A stretch of DNA of 53,428 nucleotides from Candidatus Udaeobacter sp. (GTDB lineage: Bacteria > Verrucomicrobiota > Verrucomicrobiia > Chthoniobacterales > UBA10450). The stretch is taken from the NCBI GenBank assembly GCA_013372845.1, contig JAALOD010000006.1, forward strand, positions 9,630-63,057. Reading direction: 5' to 3'. Below the pieces are notes generated by a model. The model ran no database searches and was not told the origin of the DNA. It worked only from the letters and a program-made list of their open reading frames with translations. The translations under genes and the position numbers were made by a program. Shown piece after piece: positions 39,828 to 47,316 of this stretch (the first letter of the stretch is position 1; every line of letters starts with the position of its first letter).

Positions 39828-41591
39828 TTACCCAAACCGACTTCGCTGTCGCAAGCACGGACTTATCTCGTTATCCGTAAGCGCAGCGGAAATGGCGAAT
39901 CCGGCGGAATGACTGGCGCAAAACAAATCCGCAGCGAACTGGTCAGGGGATGAAGAACTTCCATTGCGTTGCGAAATTGAAGCTCGGCATCTACGACTGA
40001 GCACGCAGGTTGACGCAAAAGGTCCATCGCCGCGTTTGCGATCCGCTTCCTGGACAAGCTGCATATCAAGTATCGGCTCGCGGTAAGTAATCAGTGCGCG
40101 GTTCACAGCTACATTAAAACGCCAGATCAGCCGACCAAGTTGATTGGCAAACCATCGCAGCTCGGCGCTGTGTACTGGAATCTCGGGGACCCGCACGGTG
40201 GCGCCAAGTCGCTGCTTGCCAGCTGCCCACGCTTTCGCGATGCCCCGCTCCCGTGTCGGTTTCATCATCGTGTCGTAGATTTCCTTGAACTCCATGCCCG
40301 GTCCACGCATCCCCACCAGTGCGACAAACGAAGTCAGCACTTCATTCGCGCCTTCGCCGATCTGGTTAATGCGTGCATCGCGCATCATTCTCTCCAGCGG
40401 AAGATCGACAAAATACGCAGAGCCGCCATAAATCTGAAATACGTCGTTGATGCACTCCCAAAGCCGCTCGGTCGTAAACACTTTTAGCATCGCCGTCTCG
40501 AGCATGTAATCCTCCAGCCCGCGATCGATTAGCGCCGCGGTGATCGTGGTCATCGCTTCCATCGCGTAAGCGTCCGCCGCGATGCGCGCGATTTTCTTTT
40601 GGACCAGGTGAAAATTACCGAGTGTTTTGTTGAATTGTTTGCGCGTGTTTGCGTGTTCGATCGCCAGACGCAAACAAGTCTTGGCTGCACCGGTGCAGCA
40701 TGCGCCGAATGTTGTGCGTCCGAAATCGAGGACGGTCAGCGCGACCTTGAGGCCTTTGCCCGGCGGGCCGAGAATATTTTCCTTGGGAACTTTGACGTCG
40801 CGCAACGCGAATCGACCAGTCGCCGTGCCCCGGATTCCCATCTTCGGCATCCGCGCTTCTAGCATTTCGAATCCGGGCATGTCCGGTGTGACCAGGAATG
40901 CCGTGATCGAGGTCTTGTCCGACCGGGGCACCGGCGTGCGCGCCATCACGGTCAGCACATCGGCGATTGCAGCGTTGGTGATGTAGCGCTTTTCACCGTT
41001 CAGAACGAAATGCGAGCCGTCTTCGCTCGGTCGCGCTTGCATTTGCACGTTCGCCGCATCCGATCCCGCTTCCCTTTCGGTCAGCGCAAATGCGCCGAGT
41101 TGTTCGCCGGTCGACAATTTTGGAAGCCATCGCTGTTTTTGCTCGTGCGTTCCAAACAGTAATAACGCGCGAATTCCAATAGAGTGGTGCGCATTCACAA
41201 AAACGGAAGTCGATGCACAGCGGCGGCCAATTTCTTCCAGGATTTTGCAGTTGGCCATTTGCGAGAATCCATGCCCGCCATATTCCTTAGGCGCAGTCAT
41301 GCCGAGCACGCCAACTCGGCCGAGTCCATCAATCACGCTGCGCGGTATATCCGCTTTTCGGTCGACTTCCGCAGGATCGAGATGCTCGTCCAGAAATTGG
41401 CGAAGCTCGGTAAGAGCTCCGTCCAATTCGACCTGTTGCGCCGCCGGGATGCGCGGATACGGCATTACCCAATCGGCAACGAAATGGCCTTGGAAAAGAC
41501 CTTTGGCAAAACCGAGCGCCTGCGGACCTGCAAAAAGCAGTTCCTCAGCTTGTTGGATTTCTTTCTGTCGCTGCGCGTCGAGCTTGTTCAT
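39828..41591 (-). CDS. acyl-CoA dehydrogenase family protein; C-terminus disrupted (true homology ends near 40070 in this frame)
   Basis: KEYGGHGFSQMANCKILEEIGRRCASTSVFVNAHHSIGIRALLLFGT, GAFALTEREAGSDAANVQMQA, FGRTTFGACCTGAAKTCLRLAIEHANTRKQF, QIYGGSAYFVDLPLERMMRDARINQIGEGANEVL. Confidence 0.9.
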   Translation of the reverse strand: MNKLDAQRQKEIQQAEELLFAGPQALGFAKGLFQGHFVADWVMPYPRIPAAQQVELDGALTELRQFLDEHLDPAEVDRKADIPRSVIDGLGRVGVLGMTAPKEYGGHGFSQMANCKILEEIGRRCASTSVFVNAHHSIGIRALLLFGTHEQKQRWLPKLSTGEQLGAFALTEREAGSDAANVQMQARPSEDGSHFVLNGEKRYITNAAIADVLTVMARTPVPRSDKTSITAFLVTPDMPGFEMLEARMPKMGIRGTATGRFALRDVKVPKENILGPPGKGLKVALTVLDFGRTTFGACCTGAAKTCLRLAIEHANTRKQFNKTLGNFHLVQKKIARIAADAYAMEAMTTITAALIDRGLEDYMLETAMLKVFTTERLWECINDVFQIYGGSAYFVDLPLERMMRDARINQIGEGANEVLTSFVALVGMRGPGMEFKEIYDTMMKPTRERGIAKAWAAGKQRLGATVRVPEIPVHSAELRWFANQLGRLIWRFNVAVNRALITYREPILDMQLVQEADRKRGDGPFASTCVLSRRCRASISQRNGSSSSPDQFAADLFCASHSAGFAISAALTDNEISPCLRQRSRFG

Positions 41592-41707: not shown

Positions 41708-42514
41708 TCACGTCTGAAGCTGGCTAAGCGCCGGAATTCGATAAAGGCGAAGTTCTTCCTCAGTCAACTCTTCAGATGGGACAAGGTGATAGTGGCGTTC
41801 TGTTCTGACGCGGACGCCGTCTGGCGCTGTTTCAAACTCAAACAGCGCGATTAGGTCGGACTGAATAAACTGCGCGCCCAACGGTCGGCAGATTGCCTCT
41901 TTAAACTTCGCAGCGCAAACGGCGATATCCTGCTCAATTTGAACCACGCTCATCCGATCTCTGCCGCCTTTTGCCTGGACTGGAATCACGTAATGAGCAC
42001 CTTGTCGATCCACGCCGACATAGACTTCGTCAGTTTCGACTTGCCCGAGGCTTGGAACGCTTGTGCGCAAATGACTCTGAAGTGAGTAGCAGGTGACGCC
42101 AGTGAAGATGTCAATCAGCCGATTGTAACGAAGCTTTGCAAGAAGCGCTTGTTCATCGTTAAGCGCGTATTTGACGATCATCCCCGGCGTTGCATCCGGC
42201 ACTTTAATTCGCGAAAGCGCCGGATTGGGTGCAATCGCCCATTTGGTAACTAAAACAAACTGATATTTGCTGCGTCCGACCGGCCGAATGATCCATTCTT
42301 TGCCTTTAGGAGCGTTGTGGGTGATCGAATGCGGCAACGCAACGCGGTACCGAAAGCTGTAAATTAAATCGCCAAGATTTTTCGGAATTTCGATCCCGAG
42401 GCGCTTAGCCATCGCGGGAATTTCTTCGCGCTCGAAAGTGACTTCCGTGGTGCCCCGCTTGTAATGTGCGAGAAATATTCGTTCGATCAGTTGCTCGTAA
42501 CGATTGCGAGCCAT
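41708..42514 (-). CDS. putative restriction endonuclease partner (QxK-type PD-(D/E)XK/Mrr-like nuclease)
   Basis: 268 aa; wHTH-like N-terminus; GQVETDEVYVGVDRQGAHYVIPVQAKGGRDRMSVVQIEQD gives a candidate D...QxK nuclease core; start overlaps the methyltransferase stop (TAATG). Confidence 0.65.
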   Translation of the reverse strand: MARNRYEQLIERIFLAHYKRGTTEVTFEREEIPAMAKRLGIEIPKNLGDLIYSFRYRVALPHSITHNAPKGKEWIIRPVGRSKYQFVLVTKWAIAPNPALSRIKVPDATPGMIVKYALNDEQALLAKLRYNRLIDIFTGVTCYSLQSHLRTSVPSLGQVETDEVYVGVDRQGAHYVIPVQAKGGRDRMSVVQIEQDIAVCAAKFKEAICRPLGAQFIQSDLIALFEFETAPDGVRVRTERHYHLVPSEELTEEELRLYRIPALSQLQT

Positions 42515-43902
42515 TATTTCTTTCCCGGCCAGCGCAAGACGACAACTTCTTCCCGAAGTTGCTCGCGGGTCGCGGTCGCGAGTCGAGTCCGGAACAGATC
42601 GATTCCGATGATTTCGTAGCCGAGCGATTGAGCAATGGACGCAAGTAGCTGACCAGTGCGAATCATGATTCGGAGATACGATGCTTGATCGCCAGCCACG
42701 TACGCCAGCTGCGCATTGGGCCGCAGCACTCGCCGTAATTCCGCGAAGTGGCGAGCCATTCCACCGAAATACAGTTTGGTTACCTTTGCATAAAGACGTT
42801 CGAAGCCGCTCGTTTTGCCAAGTTCGATCCGCCGCGCCTCAATCGCGTCGGCAATACGCTGAATCTCCGCATGATCTTCAACTAACTCATGATCAGAATC
42901 GCCCTTATAGACGCCGCGCGTATTTGATCGAATCATCGTTCGTTTGAGGGCTTGCAGTTCTTTTTTGGAAGTGATGAATCCAAGCAAAACTGTTTCGAGT
43001 CTTGTCGTGCGCGTATAATCTTTCTCGTTCGGATAAGGCGGCGATGTGATTACTATGTCGATCGATTCAGGCCGAACGAGCTTTGCGATCTCCCGCGAAT
43101 CCGCGTGATGCACTCTAGCCGGGACGGACGCCAACTGCTTCAGACGGCGTAAATCGTCGGCCATTTCCTGAACAAGAGTAAGCCATCTCGAAACCACCGG
43201 CGCGTCGGCCTTTGGTGGCCCGACGCCGACCTCTGGACCGAACTCGAGATTACCGACGGTTGTGACAAGGGCCTTGGCAAGTGCGAGCAACTGATGCGAG
43301 CGACAAGTCTCAATTCCTTTGGAGCGAATCACATCACGCAACACGAGAGCTTTGTGAAGAGGCAGCGGACTGATTGAATTTGTCAGTAGCAACTTCTGAA
43401 TCTCAGGTGAAAGCGTCCGCAATTTACCCCGATCCGGCATTTCGGTGATTAACAAAGGCATTGGATCATCAATGATCCCATTCGCTTCCAATTCGGATAT
43501 CGCCGCCGCTGCGACGCGCCGCGAGGAATCTAAAAGTTCTTCAGGGTCGAGATTCCAATCCGCCTTTGTTGAGCTCGCGAAGTGTGCCATTGGATGAGCT
43601 TCGACTCCGACGCTTTGGATCCCAAGTTTCTTGCACTCGACAATCGTAGTTCCAGTCCCGCAAAACGGATCAAGCACACGCTTTTGCGATGAGGCTCCGA
43701 ATTGCGCTAGATAATCCCGCACGAGGTGTGGCGGATAGGAAAGTACAAAGCGATACCAATCATGTGCACCGCGGTCGTCACTGCCAAGTCTATTCGCGTC
43801 TGCGAAAATTCTCCGACGAGCCGTCGCCGGGTTGCTTGTCGGTTCTAGTGTCAGCGGGCTATTTGTCATTCGAAGCCATTGTCTAGCAGACGTCCGATCC
43901 AA
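42514..43902 (-). CDS. DNA methyltransferase (N4-cytosine/N6-adenine type, TSPPY motif)
   Basis: LDPFCGTGTTIVECKKLGIQSVGVEAHPMAHFAS (SAM-binding) and IDIVITSPPYPNEKDYTRTTRLETVLLGF (catalytic motif IV). Start may be internal (MTNSPLTLEP). Confidence 0.85.
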   Translation of the reverse strand: MDRTSARQWLRMTNSPLTLEPTSNPATARRRIFADANRLGSDDRGAHDWYRFVLSYPPHLVRDYLAQFGASSQKRVLDPFCGTGTTIVECKKLGIQSVGVEAHPMAHFASSTKADWNLDPEELLDSSRRVAAAAISELEANGIIDDPMPLLITEMPDRGKLRTLSPEIQKLLLTNSISPLPLHKALVLRDVIRSKGIETCRSHQLLALAKALVTTVGNLEFGPEVGVGPPKADAPVVSRWLTLVQEMADDLRRLKQLASVPARVHHADSREIAKLVRPESIDIVITSPPYPNEKDYTRTTRLETVLLGFITSKKELQALKRTMIRSNTRGVYKGDSDHELVEDHAEIQRIADAIEARRIELGKTSGFERLYAKVTKLYFGGMARHFAELRRVLRPNAQLAYVAGDQASYLRIMIRTGQLLASIAQSLGYEIIGIDLFRTRLATATREQLREEVVVLRWPGKK

Positions 43903-43988
43903 TACGAGGCGAAATTCAGGCTGTATCCCCCATGAAGGAACTGCGCAAGCGCATGGATGTGCCTGCGCAGGTGCTCTGGAAGACGACG

Positions 43989-44105
43989 CTAACAGCGTCC
44001 TTTCTTTACACGCTGAACTTCAATCGTACGTTTGTGCTTTTTAGCATAGCCCTTTGGCACGAAACGCCCGGTAACCGAACTTCGCGCTACCTTTCGCTTT
44101 CCCAT
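43989..44105 (-). CDS. 38-aa basic small protein upstream of the R-M genes
   Basis: Read directly from the minus strand: ATGGGAAAGCGAAAG...TGTTAG = MGKRKVARSSVTGRFVPKGYAKKHKRTIEVQRVKKGRC*; preceded by AAAGGGAAATCA (SD-like). Below the size cut-off of the supplied ORF track. Confidence 0.6.
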   Translation of the reverse strand: MGKRKVARSSVTGRFVPKGYAKKHKRTIEVQRVKKGRC

Positions 44106-44169: not shown

Positions 44170-47100
44170 TCAGCTGCAGCCCTGACTCGTGCCGCACTCG
44201 GTGCAAACGCCGCAAGCGCCAGCGCGGATCACCTTGTCGCTGCCGCAAACCGAACAGGTGATTCCCATAAACACGCTGCCAAGCGCGACTGTTACCCGGT
44301 CGGCGTGACCATTGCCGTTCCCGTTCTGTCGGCCAGATTCGGAATCGCCGGGCGGATGGTTTGTGATTACGTCAATCACTTCTTTCTCGGCAGTCCGCGC
44401 CAAATCCGAGACTGGCCGGTTCACAGCCTTTTTCTCGATCTCCGCAATTTCCTTCAGCGGCAGATCGGGCTGGCCTCGGCTGGGCGAAGTCGCTTCCTTG
44501 TAGCCTTTGATGAACTGGCAGCCCAGCCAGCGAAATACGTAATCAGTGATGCTGGTAGCGTGCCGGATATCAGGGTTCTTTGTGAAACCGCTGGGCTCAA
44601 ACCGCTGGTAAGCAAACTTCTTCACCAGGCTTTCGAGCGGCACGCCGTACTGGAGAGCGATGGACGTGAGCGTGCCGACTGTGTCCATCAGCCCGCCGAT
44701 GGTGCTGCCTTCTTTGGACATGGTGATGAAAAGCTCGCCTGGCTGACCGTCCGCGTAGAGGCCGACAGTGATATAACCTTCGTGACCGGCAATCTCGAAC
44801 TTGTGGGTGAGCGACATGCGGGTGTCGGTCATGCGGTGGCGCACCGGTTGATCGACCAGGCCGCGCAACGACGCCACTTCCTGTTCCAGTTCGAGAATGC
44901 GTTTCTGAAGATCTTCTGTCCCCGGAACATCAGGAATGCCGCCGTCAGCGCCAGCGGCTACAGTGCCCATGTCTTTCGTCTTTCGGGTGTTCAGCGGCGC
45001 GGATCGCTTCGAGCCCTCTCGGTAAATCGCCACCGATTTCAAGCCGAGCCGCCATCCTTCGACGTAGGTGGTCATGATATCATCCACTGTGGCGGCTTCC
45101 GGCATGTTGACCGTCTTAGAAATTGCGCCACTAAGGAATGGCTGCGCTGCGGCCATCATTCGCAGGTGCGCCATATAATTGAGACTGCGCTCACCTTTGA
45201 ACGGCTTGAACGCGCAATCGAAAACGGGCAAGTGCTCCGGCTTTAATCCGGATGAGATTGTCGATCCATCCGTATCGGTGACGTCCTCGATGGTGTCGAA
45301 AGCGTCAATGTGCGCGACGATGCGCTCGATCTCGTCGGAATTGTAACCCAGTTTCTCCAGCGCGGGTTTGATCGTTTGGTTAACAATTTTCAGCATTCCG
45401 CCGCCCGCAAGCAGTTTGTATTTCACCAGCGCGATGTCCGGTTCAATTCCTGTCGTGTCGCAATCCATCAGGAAACTGATCGTGCCCGTTGGCGCGAGCA
45501 CGGTGACTTGCGCGTTTCGATAACCGTAACGCTTTCCAAGTTCCGCCGCGCTGTCCCAAACTTTCGCAGCCTCTTCTTTCAAATGTGCGAATTCCTTCGC
45601 ATCTGAGATTTCGCGCACCGCGTCCCGATGCAATTCAATCACTTCCAGCATCGGTGCGACGTTGTCCTTGGCGACCGGTTTCGGCACGCCGCTGGCGCGT
45701 GCGTCTCGATAACCCGGAAACGGCCCGATCGCCCGCGCCAATCGTGCGCTTTGTTCGTAAGCTTCGCCTGTCATGATCGCTGTGATCGCGCCACAGAGTG
45801 CCCGGCCTTCGACACTATCGTAGCCAAAACCGTAGCTCATGATGAGCGACCCAAGGTTGGCGTAGCCGAGTCCAAGTGTGCGGAAAACATGCGAGTTCTC
45901 CGCGATTTCTTTGATCGGATAACTCGCGTTATCGACAATGATTTCCTGTGCCGTGATGAAAACGCGCACCGCCGCTTTGAATCGTTCGACATCAAAGTCG
46001 CCCTCCGGCGTCTTAAATTTCATCAAATTCAGCGAAGCCAGATTGCACGCCGTGTTATCGAGGAACAGATATTCCGAGCACGGGTTCGTTGAATTTTGAC
46101 GGCCCGTGCCTTTGCACGTGTGCCATTTGTGGATCGTGGAATCGAACTGCATTCCAGGATCGCCGCAGATGTATGTGCCTTCGGCGATCTTGCGAAGCAG
46201 CGTGCGCGCCTCTTTGCGTTCGCACGGTTTGCGGTCCGTAACGCGGCGCGTCCACCACTCACGGCCTTCCAGCGCCCCTTCCATGAATTCGTCGCTTACC
46301 CGCACGCTCACATTTTCGTTCTGATACATGACCGAGCCATACGCATCGCCATTGTAACTGCCATCGTAGCCCTGCTCGATAAGCGCCCACGCCTTCTTTT
46401 CTTCCTTCTGTTTGGCATCGATGAACTCTTCAATGTCTGGGTGCCAATCCTTGAGCGTATTCATCTTCGCGGCGCGCCGGGTTTTGCCGCCGCTCTTCAC
46501 CACGTTCGCAACCTGGTCGTAAACTTTCAGAAACGAGAGCGGCCCGCTGGGTTTGCCACCGCCACTCAATTTTTCTCTTGTTGACCTGAGCGAAGAAAGA
46601 TCGGTGCCGGTACCGCTGCCATACTTGAAGAGCATCGCTTCACTGGTCGCCAGCCGCATGATGTCTTCCATCGTGTCCTCCACACTCTGGATGAAACACG
46701 CGCTTCCCTGCGGATACTCGTACTGCGACGCGGCTCGCTCCGCTTTGCCGGTCTCCCGGTTGTAGAAATAATTGCCCGCGCCAGCGCCTTTGCCCACGCC
46801 ATATTGGTGATACAAGCCGACGTTGAACCAGACCGGCGAATTGAACGCGCCGTACTGGTTCAAGCACAGCCAGGTCAGTTCATCGTAAAAAACTTCCGCA
46901 GCTTCCGCATCCGCGAAGTAGCCGTCCGCCAGTCCCCAGTCGGCAATCGTGCGCGTGACGCGGTGAATCAGCTGCCGCACCGAAGTTTCTCGTCCGCCCT
47001 TATATGGATCGGTGCCGTTCGCGATGTCGCCGTAAAAATATTTCGAGACAGCTATTTTGGTCGCCAGCGCGCTCCAGCTTTTCGGGACTTCGATGTCCTC

Positions 47101-47316
47101 CTGCTTAAAGATGACTTTGCCACTGTCATCGGTGATTTCGGCGGTGCGCCGTTCCCATTCAACCTGATCAAATGGGGCAACAGCGGCATCGCTGAACACG
47201 CGCTCAAGACGCAGGCCGGTCTTTTTCTTTTTGTCGGCCTTGTTTCTTCGGCGCACAGCCGGTTCACGTGGTCCTTTAAGCGAGGCGGGCGGAATTCCGG
47301 GTTTTAGTTGAATCAT
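44170..47316 (-). CDS. nrdJ: vitamin B12-dependent (class II) ribonucleoside-diphosphate reductase
   Basis: 1048 aa; FNSPVWFNVGLYHQYGVGKGAGAGNYFY, ACFIQSVEDTMEDIMRLATSEAMLFKYGSGTGTDLSSLRS, NPCSEYLFLDNTACNLASLNLM, APTGTISFLMDCDTTGIEPDIALVKYK; C-terminal zinc ribbon CSVCGSDKVIRAGACGVCTECGTSQGCS. Confidence 0.97.
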   Translation of the reverse strand: MIQLKPGIPPASLKGPREPAVRRRNKADKKKKTGLRLERVFSDAAVAPFDQVEWERRTAEITDDSGKVIFKQEDIEVPKSWSALATKIAVSKYFYGDIANGTDPYKGGRETSVRQLIHRVTRTIADWGLADGYFADAEAAEVFYDELTWLCLNQYGAFNSPVWFNVGLYHQYGVGKGAGAGNYFYNRETGKAERAASQYEYPQGSACFIQSVEDTMEDIMRLATSEAMLFKYGSGTGTDLSSLRSTREKLSGGGKPSGPLSFLKVYDQVANVVKSGGKTRRAAKMNTLKDWHPDIEEFIDAKQKEEKKAWALIEQGYDGSYNGDAYGSVMYQNENVSVRVSDEFMEGALEGREWWTRRVTDRKPCERKEARTLLRKIAEGTYICGDPGMQFDSTIHKWHTCKGTGRQNSTNPCSEYLFLDNTACNLASLNLMKFKTPEGDFDVERFKAAVRVFITAQEIIVDNASYPIKEIAENSHVFRTLGLGYANLGSLIMSYGFGYDSVEGRALCGAITAIMTGEAYEQSARLARAIGPFPGYRDARASGVPKPVAKDNVAPMLEVIELHRDAVREISDAKEFAHLKEEAAKVWDSAAELGKRYGYRNAQVTVLAPTGTISFLMDCDTTGIEPDIALVKYKLLAGGGMLKIVNQTIKPALEKLGYNSDEIERIVAHIDAFDTIEDVTDTDGSTISSGLKPEHLPVFDCAFKPFKGERSLNYMAHLRMMAAAQPFLSGAISKTVNMPEAATVDDIMTTYVEGWRLGLKSVAIYREGSKRSAPLNTRKTKDMGTVAAGADGGIPDVPGTEDLQKRILELEQEVASLRGLVDQPVRHRMTDTRMSLTHKFEIAGHEGYITVGLYADGQPGELFITMSKEGSTIGGLMDTVGTLTSIALQYGVPLESLVKKFAYQRFEPSGFTKNPDIRHATSITDYVFRWLGCQFIKGYKEATSPSRGQPDLPLKEIAEIEKKAVNRPVSDLARTAEKEVIDVITNHPPGDSESGRQNGNGNGHADRVTVALGSVFMGITCSVCGSDKVIRAGACGVCTECGTSQGCS

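What the first reader, a model, noticed from the sequence alone, without database searches (positions are those of the whole stretch)
41708..44105. Compact R-M-like cassette: 38-aa basic ORF, TSPPY methyltransferase, TAATG-coupled QxK nuclease
Seen: three minus-strand ORFs (44105-43989, 43902-42514, 42514-41708). The MTase stop and nuclease start share TAATG. The nuclease has a core of ETDEVYVGVDRQGAHYVIPVQAKGG. Established: TSPPY is motif IV of N4-cytosine/N6-adenine MTases, and QxK variants of the PD-(D/E)XK core occur in Mrr-type nucleases. Inference: this is a type II-like R-M system, possibly of an undescribed subtype. The 38-aa ORF could be a control or accessory element but is too short for a classical C-protein HTH. 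This is the best candidate here for an undescribed system.
Basis: partly seen in the sequence, partly recalled or inferred. Interest (0 to 1): 0.75.

Follow-up and report, generated by a model that had tools for sequence, protein, structure and literature searches.

The report
Two-gene restriction-modification system, probably CGATCG
This is an ordinary bacterial DNA-cutting and DNA-marking gene pair of a widespread but little-studied family, probably aimed at the sequence CGATCG; its most interesting feature is that the same cutting enzyme is paired with two unrelated marking enzymes in different bacteria.

Summary
The three ORFs are real and the M/R pair is a genuine type II-like restriction-modification cassette, but not an undescribed one. 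The 268-aa protein matches a PADLOC "Type II restriction enzyme" model over its whole length (E 1.7e-119). It has an invariant E-x-D...(Q/E)AK core, and a confident AlphaFold model (pLDDT 92) whose weak Foldseek hits include many PD-(D/E)XK nucleases. The upstream gene is a motif I-before-IV amino-methyltransferase (TSPPY), probably m4C, joined by TAATG. All 8 genomes with this MTase among 197 sampled from the order also carry the nuclease. The 38-aa ORF is not part of the system: relatives carry it without M or R, once right after the ribonucleotide reductase gene. The nuclease family pairs with the amino-MTase in 55 of 64 genome loci; in 6 of them, in small Klebsiella/Salmonella plasmids and in all 22 viral contigs it pairs with an m5C MTase instead. 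That m5C group is near-universal in the cyanobacteria sampled and published work assigns it to CGATCG (PvuI site), so I infer CGATCG as target. Five loci have M and R in one open frame. Verdict: new member of a known kind, with a partner-class swap worth a specialist's attention.

The parts
42514..43869 (-). DNA amino-methyltransferase (M), probably N4-cytosine; motif order I (DPFCGTGTT) before IV (TSPPY). Frame is open from the TTG at 43902; ATG at 43869 is the likely start.
   Evidence: Pfam N6_N4_Mtase 2e-11; PADLOC MTase_II 4e-38; alignment A3 of 37 relatives
41708..42514 (-). Type II restriction endonuclease (R), 268 aa, PD-(D/E)XK-like core E160-x-D162...Q180-A-K182
   Evidence: PADLOC PDLC03404 REase_II, residues 1-259, E 1.7e-119; alignment A1; AlphaFold pLDDT 92.2, pTM 0.86; Foldseek
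42512..42516 (-). TAATG overlap of the M stop and R start (translational coupling inferred)
   Evidence: sequence; tight M-R junctions in many relatives, including a close relative with TGATG
43989..44105 (-). 38-aa basic ORF, NOT part of the system; small gene downstream of nrdJ
   Evidence: found in G103 and G127, which lack M and R; directly follows nrdJ in L121

Best explanation
The M and R genes form a two-gene type II (palindromic, IIP-like) restriction-modification system without a control protein. M methylates, most probably at N4 of a cytosine, every copy of a short palindrome in the host genome. R, a PD-(D/E)XK-like nuclease with a QxK active site, cuts incoming DNA in which that palindrome is unmethylated. 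The TAATG junction makes R translation depend on M translation, so protection precedes cutting. The target is inferred to be CGATCG (the PvuI site), because homologous R proteins are paired elsewhere with an m5C MTase group that published work assigns to CGATCG. Shown: gene structure, homology, conservation of catalytic residues, co-occurrence, partner classes. Inferred: catalytic activity, m4C chemistry, the CGATCG target, translational coupling.
For: R matches a type II REase model full length. It has an invariant E/D/K core, (Q/E)AK. AF2 model pLDDT 92; among weak Foldseek hits AdnA nuclease, ACE1 (Cas4 family), NucS/EndoMS, HincII, RecE and MspJI recur. M carries MTase motifs I and IV. M is found in 8 of 197 genomes of the order, and all 8 have R. 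M is next to R in 55 of 64 genome-contig loci, and M and R share one open frame in five. Target: m5C partners of R are 44-64% identical to the m5C MTase found in all 25 sampled genomes of the Calothrix family and only 30-37% to two other m5C MTases of the same Calothrix genome. PMC4390886 assigns the near-universal cyanobacterial m5C group to CGATCG (with XorII), reports m4C CGATCG MTases too, and notes a gene similar to CGATCG endonucleases beside the MTase in Calothrix PCC 7103. L073 and L096 show this pairing.
Against: No enzyme of this family could be tied here to a measured specificity. Site avoidance is only weakly supportive: CGATCG ranks 1st, 4th, 10th, 11th, 17th and 19th most avoided of 64 palindromes in six R-bearing genomes, versus 20th in pooled R-less relatives, and its count per Mb in G000 equals that of R-less congeners. 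Foldseek E-values are weak (best 1.2e-3) and many unrelated folds appear among the hits. The m4C rather than m6A assignment rests on the S-P-P-Y form of motif IV (general knowledge) and on the link to cytosine MTases.
Confidence: 0.72

Rival explanations
1. Type II R-M pair as above, but with a different palindromic target (not CGATCG); R specificity drifted between the m5C-paired and amino-MTase-paired branches, and M marks some other cytosine or adenine site.
For: R sequences of the two branches are only about 50-56% identical; no direct specificity data; weak site-avoidance signal.
Against: Partner class changes only about twice on the R tree and m5C-paired R are nested among amino-paired R, which is easiest if the target stayed the same; an m4C class of CGATCG MTases is reported.
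Confidence: 0.22
2. The pair is decaying or inactive in this host and serves no restriction function today.
For: Several relatives in the order carry broken copies (G145, G119, G010, G039 contig 462, G156).
Against: In the window both frames are intact and all invariant residues are present; a near relative (L022, 90% R identity) is also intact.
Confidence: 0.1
3. Three-gene system in which the 38-aa basic ORF regulates M/R expression.
For: It lies directly upstream of M on the same strand.
Against: No homologue in any other R-bearing locus searched by tblastn; its homologues in G103 and G127 occur without M or R, one directly after nrdJ.
Confidence: 0.02

Closest known systems
PADLOC REase_II family PDLC03404 with type II MTases
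   Same: R matches over its full length, E 1.7e-119; adjacent MTase
   Different: nothing detected; the model carries no named prototype or specificity
PvuI / XorII / RshI-type CGATCG R-M systems (m5C MTase)
   Same: homologous R is paired elsewhere with the MTase group that PMC4390886 places with XorII and the cyanobacterial CGATCG MTases
   Different: here the MTase is an amino-MTase (probably m4C), not m5C; specificity not measured; homology of R to R.PvuI or R.XorII themselves not tested
m4C CGATCG methyltransferases noted in some cyanobacteria (PMC4390886)
   Same: expected to be the same chemistry and target as this M
   Different: sequences were not in hand; relation to this M not tested
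Small ColRNAI plasmid R-M of Klebsiella/Salmonella/Citrobacter (e.g. NZ_CP115735, pB1019)
   Same: R 56% identical, same M-then-R order with overlapping genes
   Different: partner is an m5C MTase

Membership tests
Type II restriction-modification system | separate, adjacent genes for a DNA MTase and a restriction endonuclease | tested here: met
   M present only where R is present in 197 genomes
Type II restriction-modification system | both enzymes act on the same sequence; methylation blocks cleavage | not testable with these tools
   needs an in vivo or in vitro assay
Type II restriction-modification system | endonuclease belongs to a type II REase family | tested here: met
   PDLC03404, residues 1-259, 1.7e-119
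PD-(D/E)XK nuclease fold | D...(D/E/Q)xK catalytic residues conserved across the family | tested here: met
   E160, D162, K182 invariant, Q180 nearly invariant with E in L012 and L044, in 49 sequences
PD-(D/E)XK nuclease fold | predicted fold matches solved PD-(D/E)XK nucleases | tested here: inconclusive
   confident model; PD-(D/E)XK enzymes recur among the hits but E-values are 1e-3 to 0.1, query TM about 0.25 or less, and unrelated folds also appear
CGATCG (PvuI/XorII) R-M systems | recognises CGATCG | tested here: inconclusive
   indirect: m5C partner group assigned to CGATCG in PMC4390886; site avoidance weak
CGATCG (PvuI/XorII) R-M systems | R homologous to characterised R.PvuI, R.XorII or RshI | not tested
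   no characterised R sequence available in the collections reached
N4-cytosine MTase (m4C) | methylates N4 of cytosine | not testable with these tools
   SPPY of motif IV invariant, preceded by T in nearly all rows, fits m4C; no assay
C-protein-controlled R-M systems | small HTH controller gene linked to R or M | tested here: not met
   no such ORF recognised next to M or R; the 38-aa ORF has no HTH match and is independent of M/R
Mrr-type (type IV) restriction | match to an Mrr-type family, no cognate MTase | tested here: not met
   no Mrr match in Pfam; cognate MTase present

The most novel reading that the evidence does not exclude
One restriction endonuclease family with a constant CGATCG target has exchanged its protecting enzyme between two unrelated chemistries (amino/m4C and m5C) at least twice, with the m5C form on the phage and small-plasmid copies and the m4C form dominating environmental genomes, and has repeatedly fused M and R into one polypeptide.
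Probability: 0.55. Interest if true: 0.45.

Novelty: new member of a known kind. Interest (0 to 1): 0.3.

Why it matters
The window's pair itself is ordinary. The family offers a clean natural experiment: related nucleases protected by two unrelated methylation chemistries, so one could test whether R is blocked by both m4C and m5C at the same cytosine and how an R gene survives a change of its protector. If the CGATCG assignment holds, it also links a widespread, poorly annotated family ("hypothetical protein" in most plasmid records listed) to a known specificity and to the near-universal orphan MTase of HIP1-rich cyanobacteria.

Tried and rejected
(1) 38-aa ORF as controller: rejected. (2) Pfam, NCBIfam and PHROGs for R: no meaningful hit; weak phmmer/Pfam hits to pneumococcal histidine triad proteins are short C-terminal chance-like matches. 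(3) PDB sequence searches with R and its profile: no relative. (5) Looking for the R. sphaeroides RshI region by accession CP030273: record not held. (6) Sau96I and other named systems as relatives: only guesses from size, no support found. (7) GenBank phage records: no R match, although 22 IMG/VR contigs have one. (8) The S. meliloti methylome paper lists CGATCG as a shell motif but calls it m6A and does not link it to a gene, so it was not used as evidence.

Full report
OBSERVATION. The three minus-strand ORFs are present as described. M (open frame 43902-42514) carries LDPFCGTGTT near its N terminus and TSPPYPNEKDYTR about 200 residues later. R (42514-41708) carries ETDEVYVGVDRQGAHYVIPVQAKGG. 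The M stop and R start share a base in TAATG. M probably starts at the ATG at 43869, inside the poorly conserved N terminus.

THE NUCLEASE. R matches the PADLOC model PDLC03404 "Type II restriction enzyme" over residues 1-259, E 1.7e-119. No Pfam, NCBIfam or PHROG family names it and no PDB chain is convincingly related by sequence. In 49 relatives E160, D162, A181 and K182 are invariant; Q180 is nearly so, with E in L012 and L044, i.e. a D...(Q/E)xK core. AlphaFold2 on this alignment without the plasmid row gave mean pLDDT 92.2, pTM 0.86. Foldseek against the PDB gives weak hits (best E 1.2e-3). AdnA nuclease, ACE1 (Cas4 family), NucS/EndoMS, RecE, HincII, a Cas4 protein and MspJI recur among them, but unrelated folds also appear. 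A PD-(D/E)XK nuclease is therefore likely, without a close solved relative.

THE METHYLTRANSFERASE. M matches N6_N4_Mtase (2e-11) and type II MTase models (4e-38). Motif order I before IV with a long stretch between fits an alpha-type amino-MTase. The SPPY form of motif IV fits m4C (general knowledge, not measured).

CO-OCCURRENCE AND THE 38-AA ORF. In 197 genomes of the window's order, R or a fragment of it is found in 15 and M in 8; all 8 genomes with M have R. The 38-aa ORF is found in 3 of 197. The two other than the window's genome (G103, G127) have neither M nor R, and in G127 it directly follows nrdJ, as in the window. It was not found in any R-bearing locus other than the window's own. 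It is best read as a small gene next to nrdJ, unrelated to the R-M pair.

FAMILY AND PARTNER SWAP. A scan of GTDB representative genomes gave 64 loci spread over many phyla (Verrucomicrobia, Planctomycetes, Chloroflexi, Acidobacteria, Armatimonadetes, Proteobacteria, Bacteroidetes, Gemmatimonadetes, cyanobacteria, Actinobacteria, an ANME-1 archaeal MAG). R is next to the amino-MTase in 55, next to an m5C MTase in 6 (L070, L071, L073, L074, L076, L079), and cut by a contig end in 3. L006 and L008 from the window's order also have the m5C partner. Plasmid records with R (64, mostly small Klebsiella and Salmonella plasmids) have an m5C partner in every record examined, and all 22 IMG/VR contigs have the m5C partner. 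On a maximum-likelihood tree of R the partner class changes twice (2 throughout the 5-95% range of bootstrap trees, shuffled mean about 8.5): one main m5C clade and one Chloroflexales pair. The tree is only moderately supported, so a single change is not strictly excluded. In five loci (L024, L026, L029, L030, L049) M and R share one uninterrupted frame; whether one protein is made is unknown, since in-frame ATGs exist at the R start.

TARGET. The m5C partner of R in Calothrix elsteri (L073) has matches in all 25 genomes of its family that were searched, most of them near full length at 56-92% identity. The loci around them are rich in GCGATCGC (80 in 98 kb against 0 for the reversed sequence). 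RM-linked m5C enzymes are about 44-64% identical to this near-universal group but 30-37% to two other m5C MTases of the same genome. PMC4390886 reports that m5C CGATCG MTases (orthologues of a proven Anabaena enzyme and of the Synechocystis enzyme, grouping with XorII) are nearly coextensive with HIP1-rich cyanobacteria, that some cyanobacteria instead have m4C CGATCG MTases, and that in Calothrix PCC 7103 the gene adjoins one similar to CGATCG-specific endonucleases. Synechocystis M.Ssp6803I makes m5CGATCG, which blocks PvuI (PMC6604393), and R. sphaeroides 2.4.1 has the PvuI isoschizomer RshI and m5C at CGATCG (PMC6256690). I infer that R recognises CGATCG and that the window's M protects it by another chemistry. 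That the near-universal group in my sample is the one the paper describes is itself an inference from its distribution; no characterised CGATCG MTase sequence was in hand. Site avoidance gives only weak support: ranks 1, 4, 10, 11, 17 and 19 of 64 palindromes in six R-bearing genomes against 20 in pooled R-less congeners, and no difference in CGATCG density between the window's genome and R-less congeners.

MECHANISM. Most likely M methylates CGATCG at a cytosine N4; R, presumably a dimer, cuts unmethylated CGATCG in incoming DNA; TAATG coupling ties R output to M translation. No step of activity has been shown.

VERDICT. A new member of a known kind: a type II R-M pair of a family already in defence databases. 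The amino/m5C partner swap and the M-R single-frame loci are the parts a restriction-enzyme specialist might find new; I did not find a paper describing them in the searches made, which cover only open-licence papers.

Noticed in passing
loci L024, L026, L029, L030, L049: M and R lie in a single uninterrupted reading frame, suggesting natural M-R fusions in at least two separate lineages of the R tree.
   Followed up: partly
viral contigs L205-L226: All 22 viral (IMG/VR) contigs with this R carry the m5C partner, none the amino-MTase.
   Followed up: yes
G145, G119, G010, G039 contig 462, G156: Broken or split copies of R (and in some cases M) in relatives, suggesting frequent decay of this system in the order.
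   Followed up: no
39828-41591 (- strand): Acyl-CoA dehydrogenase ORF whose last ~65 residues look out of frame, with an overlapping ORF at 39863-40069 in another frame; possible frameshift.
   Followed up: no
44170-47316 and 43989-44105 (- strand): Class II (B12-dependent) ribonucleotide reductase nrdJ, followed by the 38-aa basic ORF that also follows nrdJ in a relative (L121); the small ORF's function is unknown.
   Followed up: partly
whole genome G000 and congeners: CGATCG is about seven to fourteen times more frequent than its reversed sequence GCTAGC in the window's genus, whether or not R is present.
   Followed up: partly
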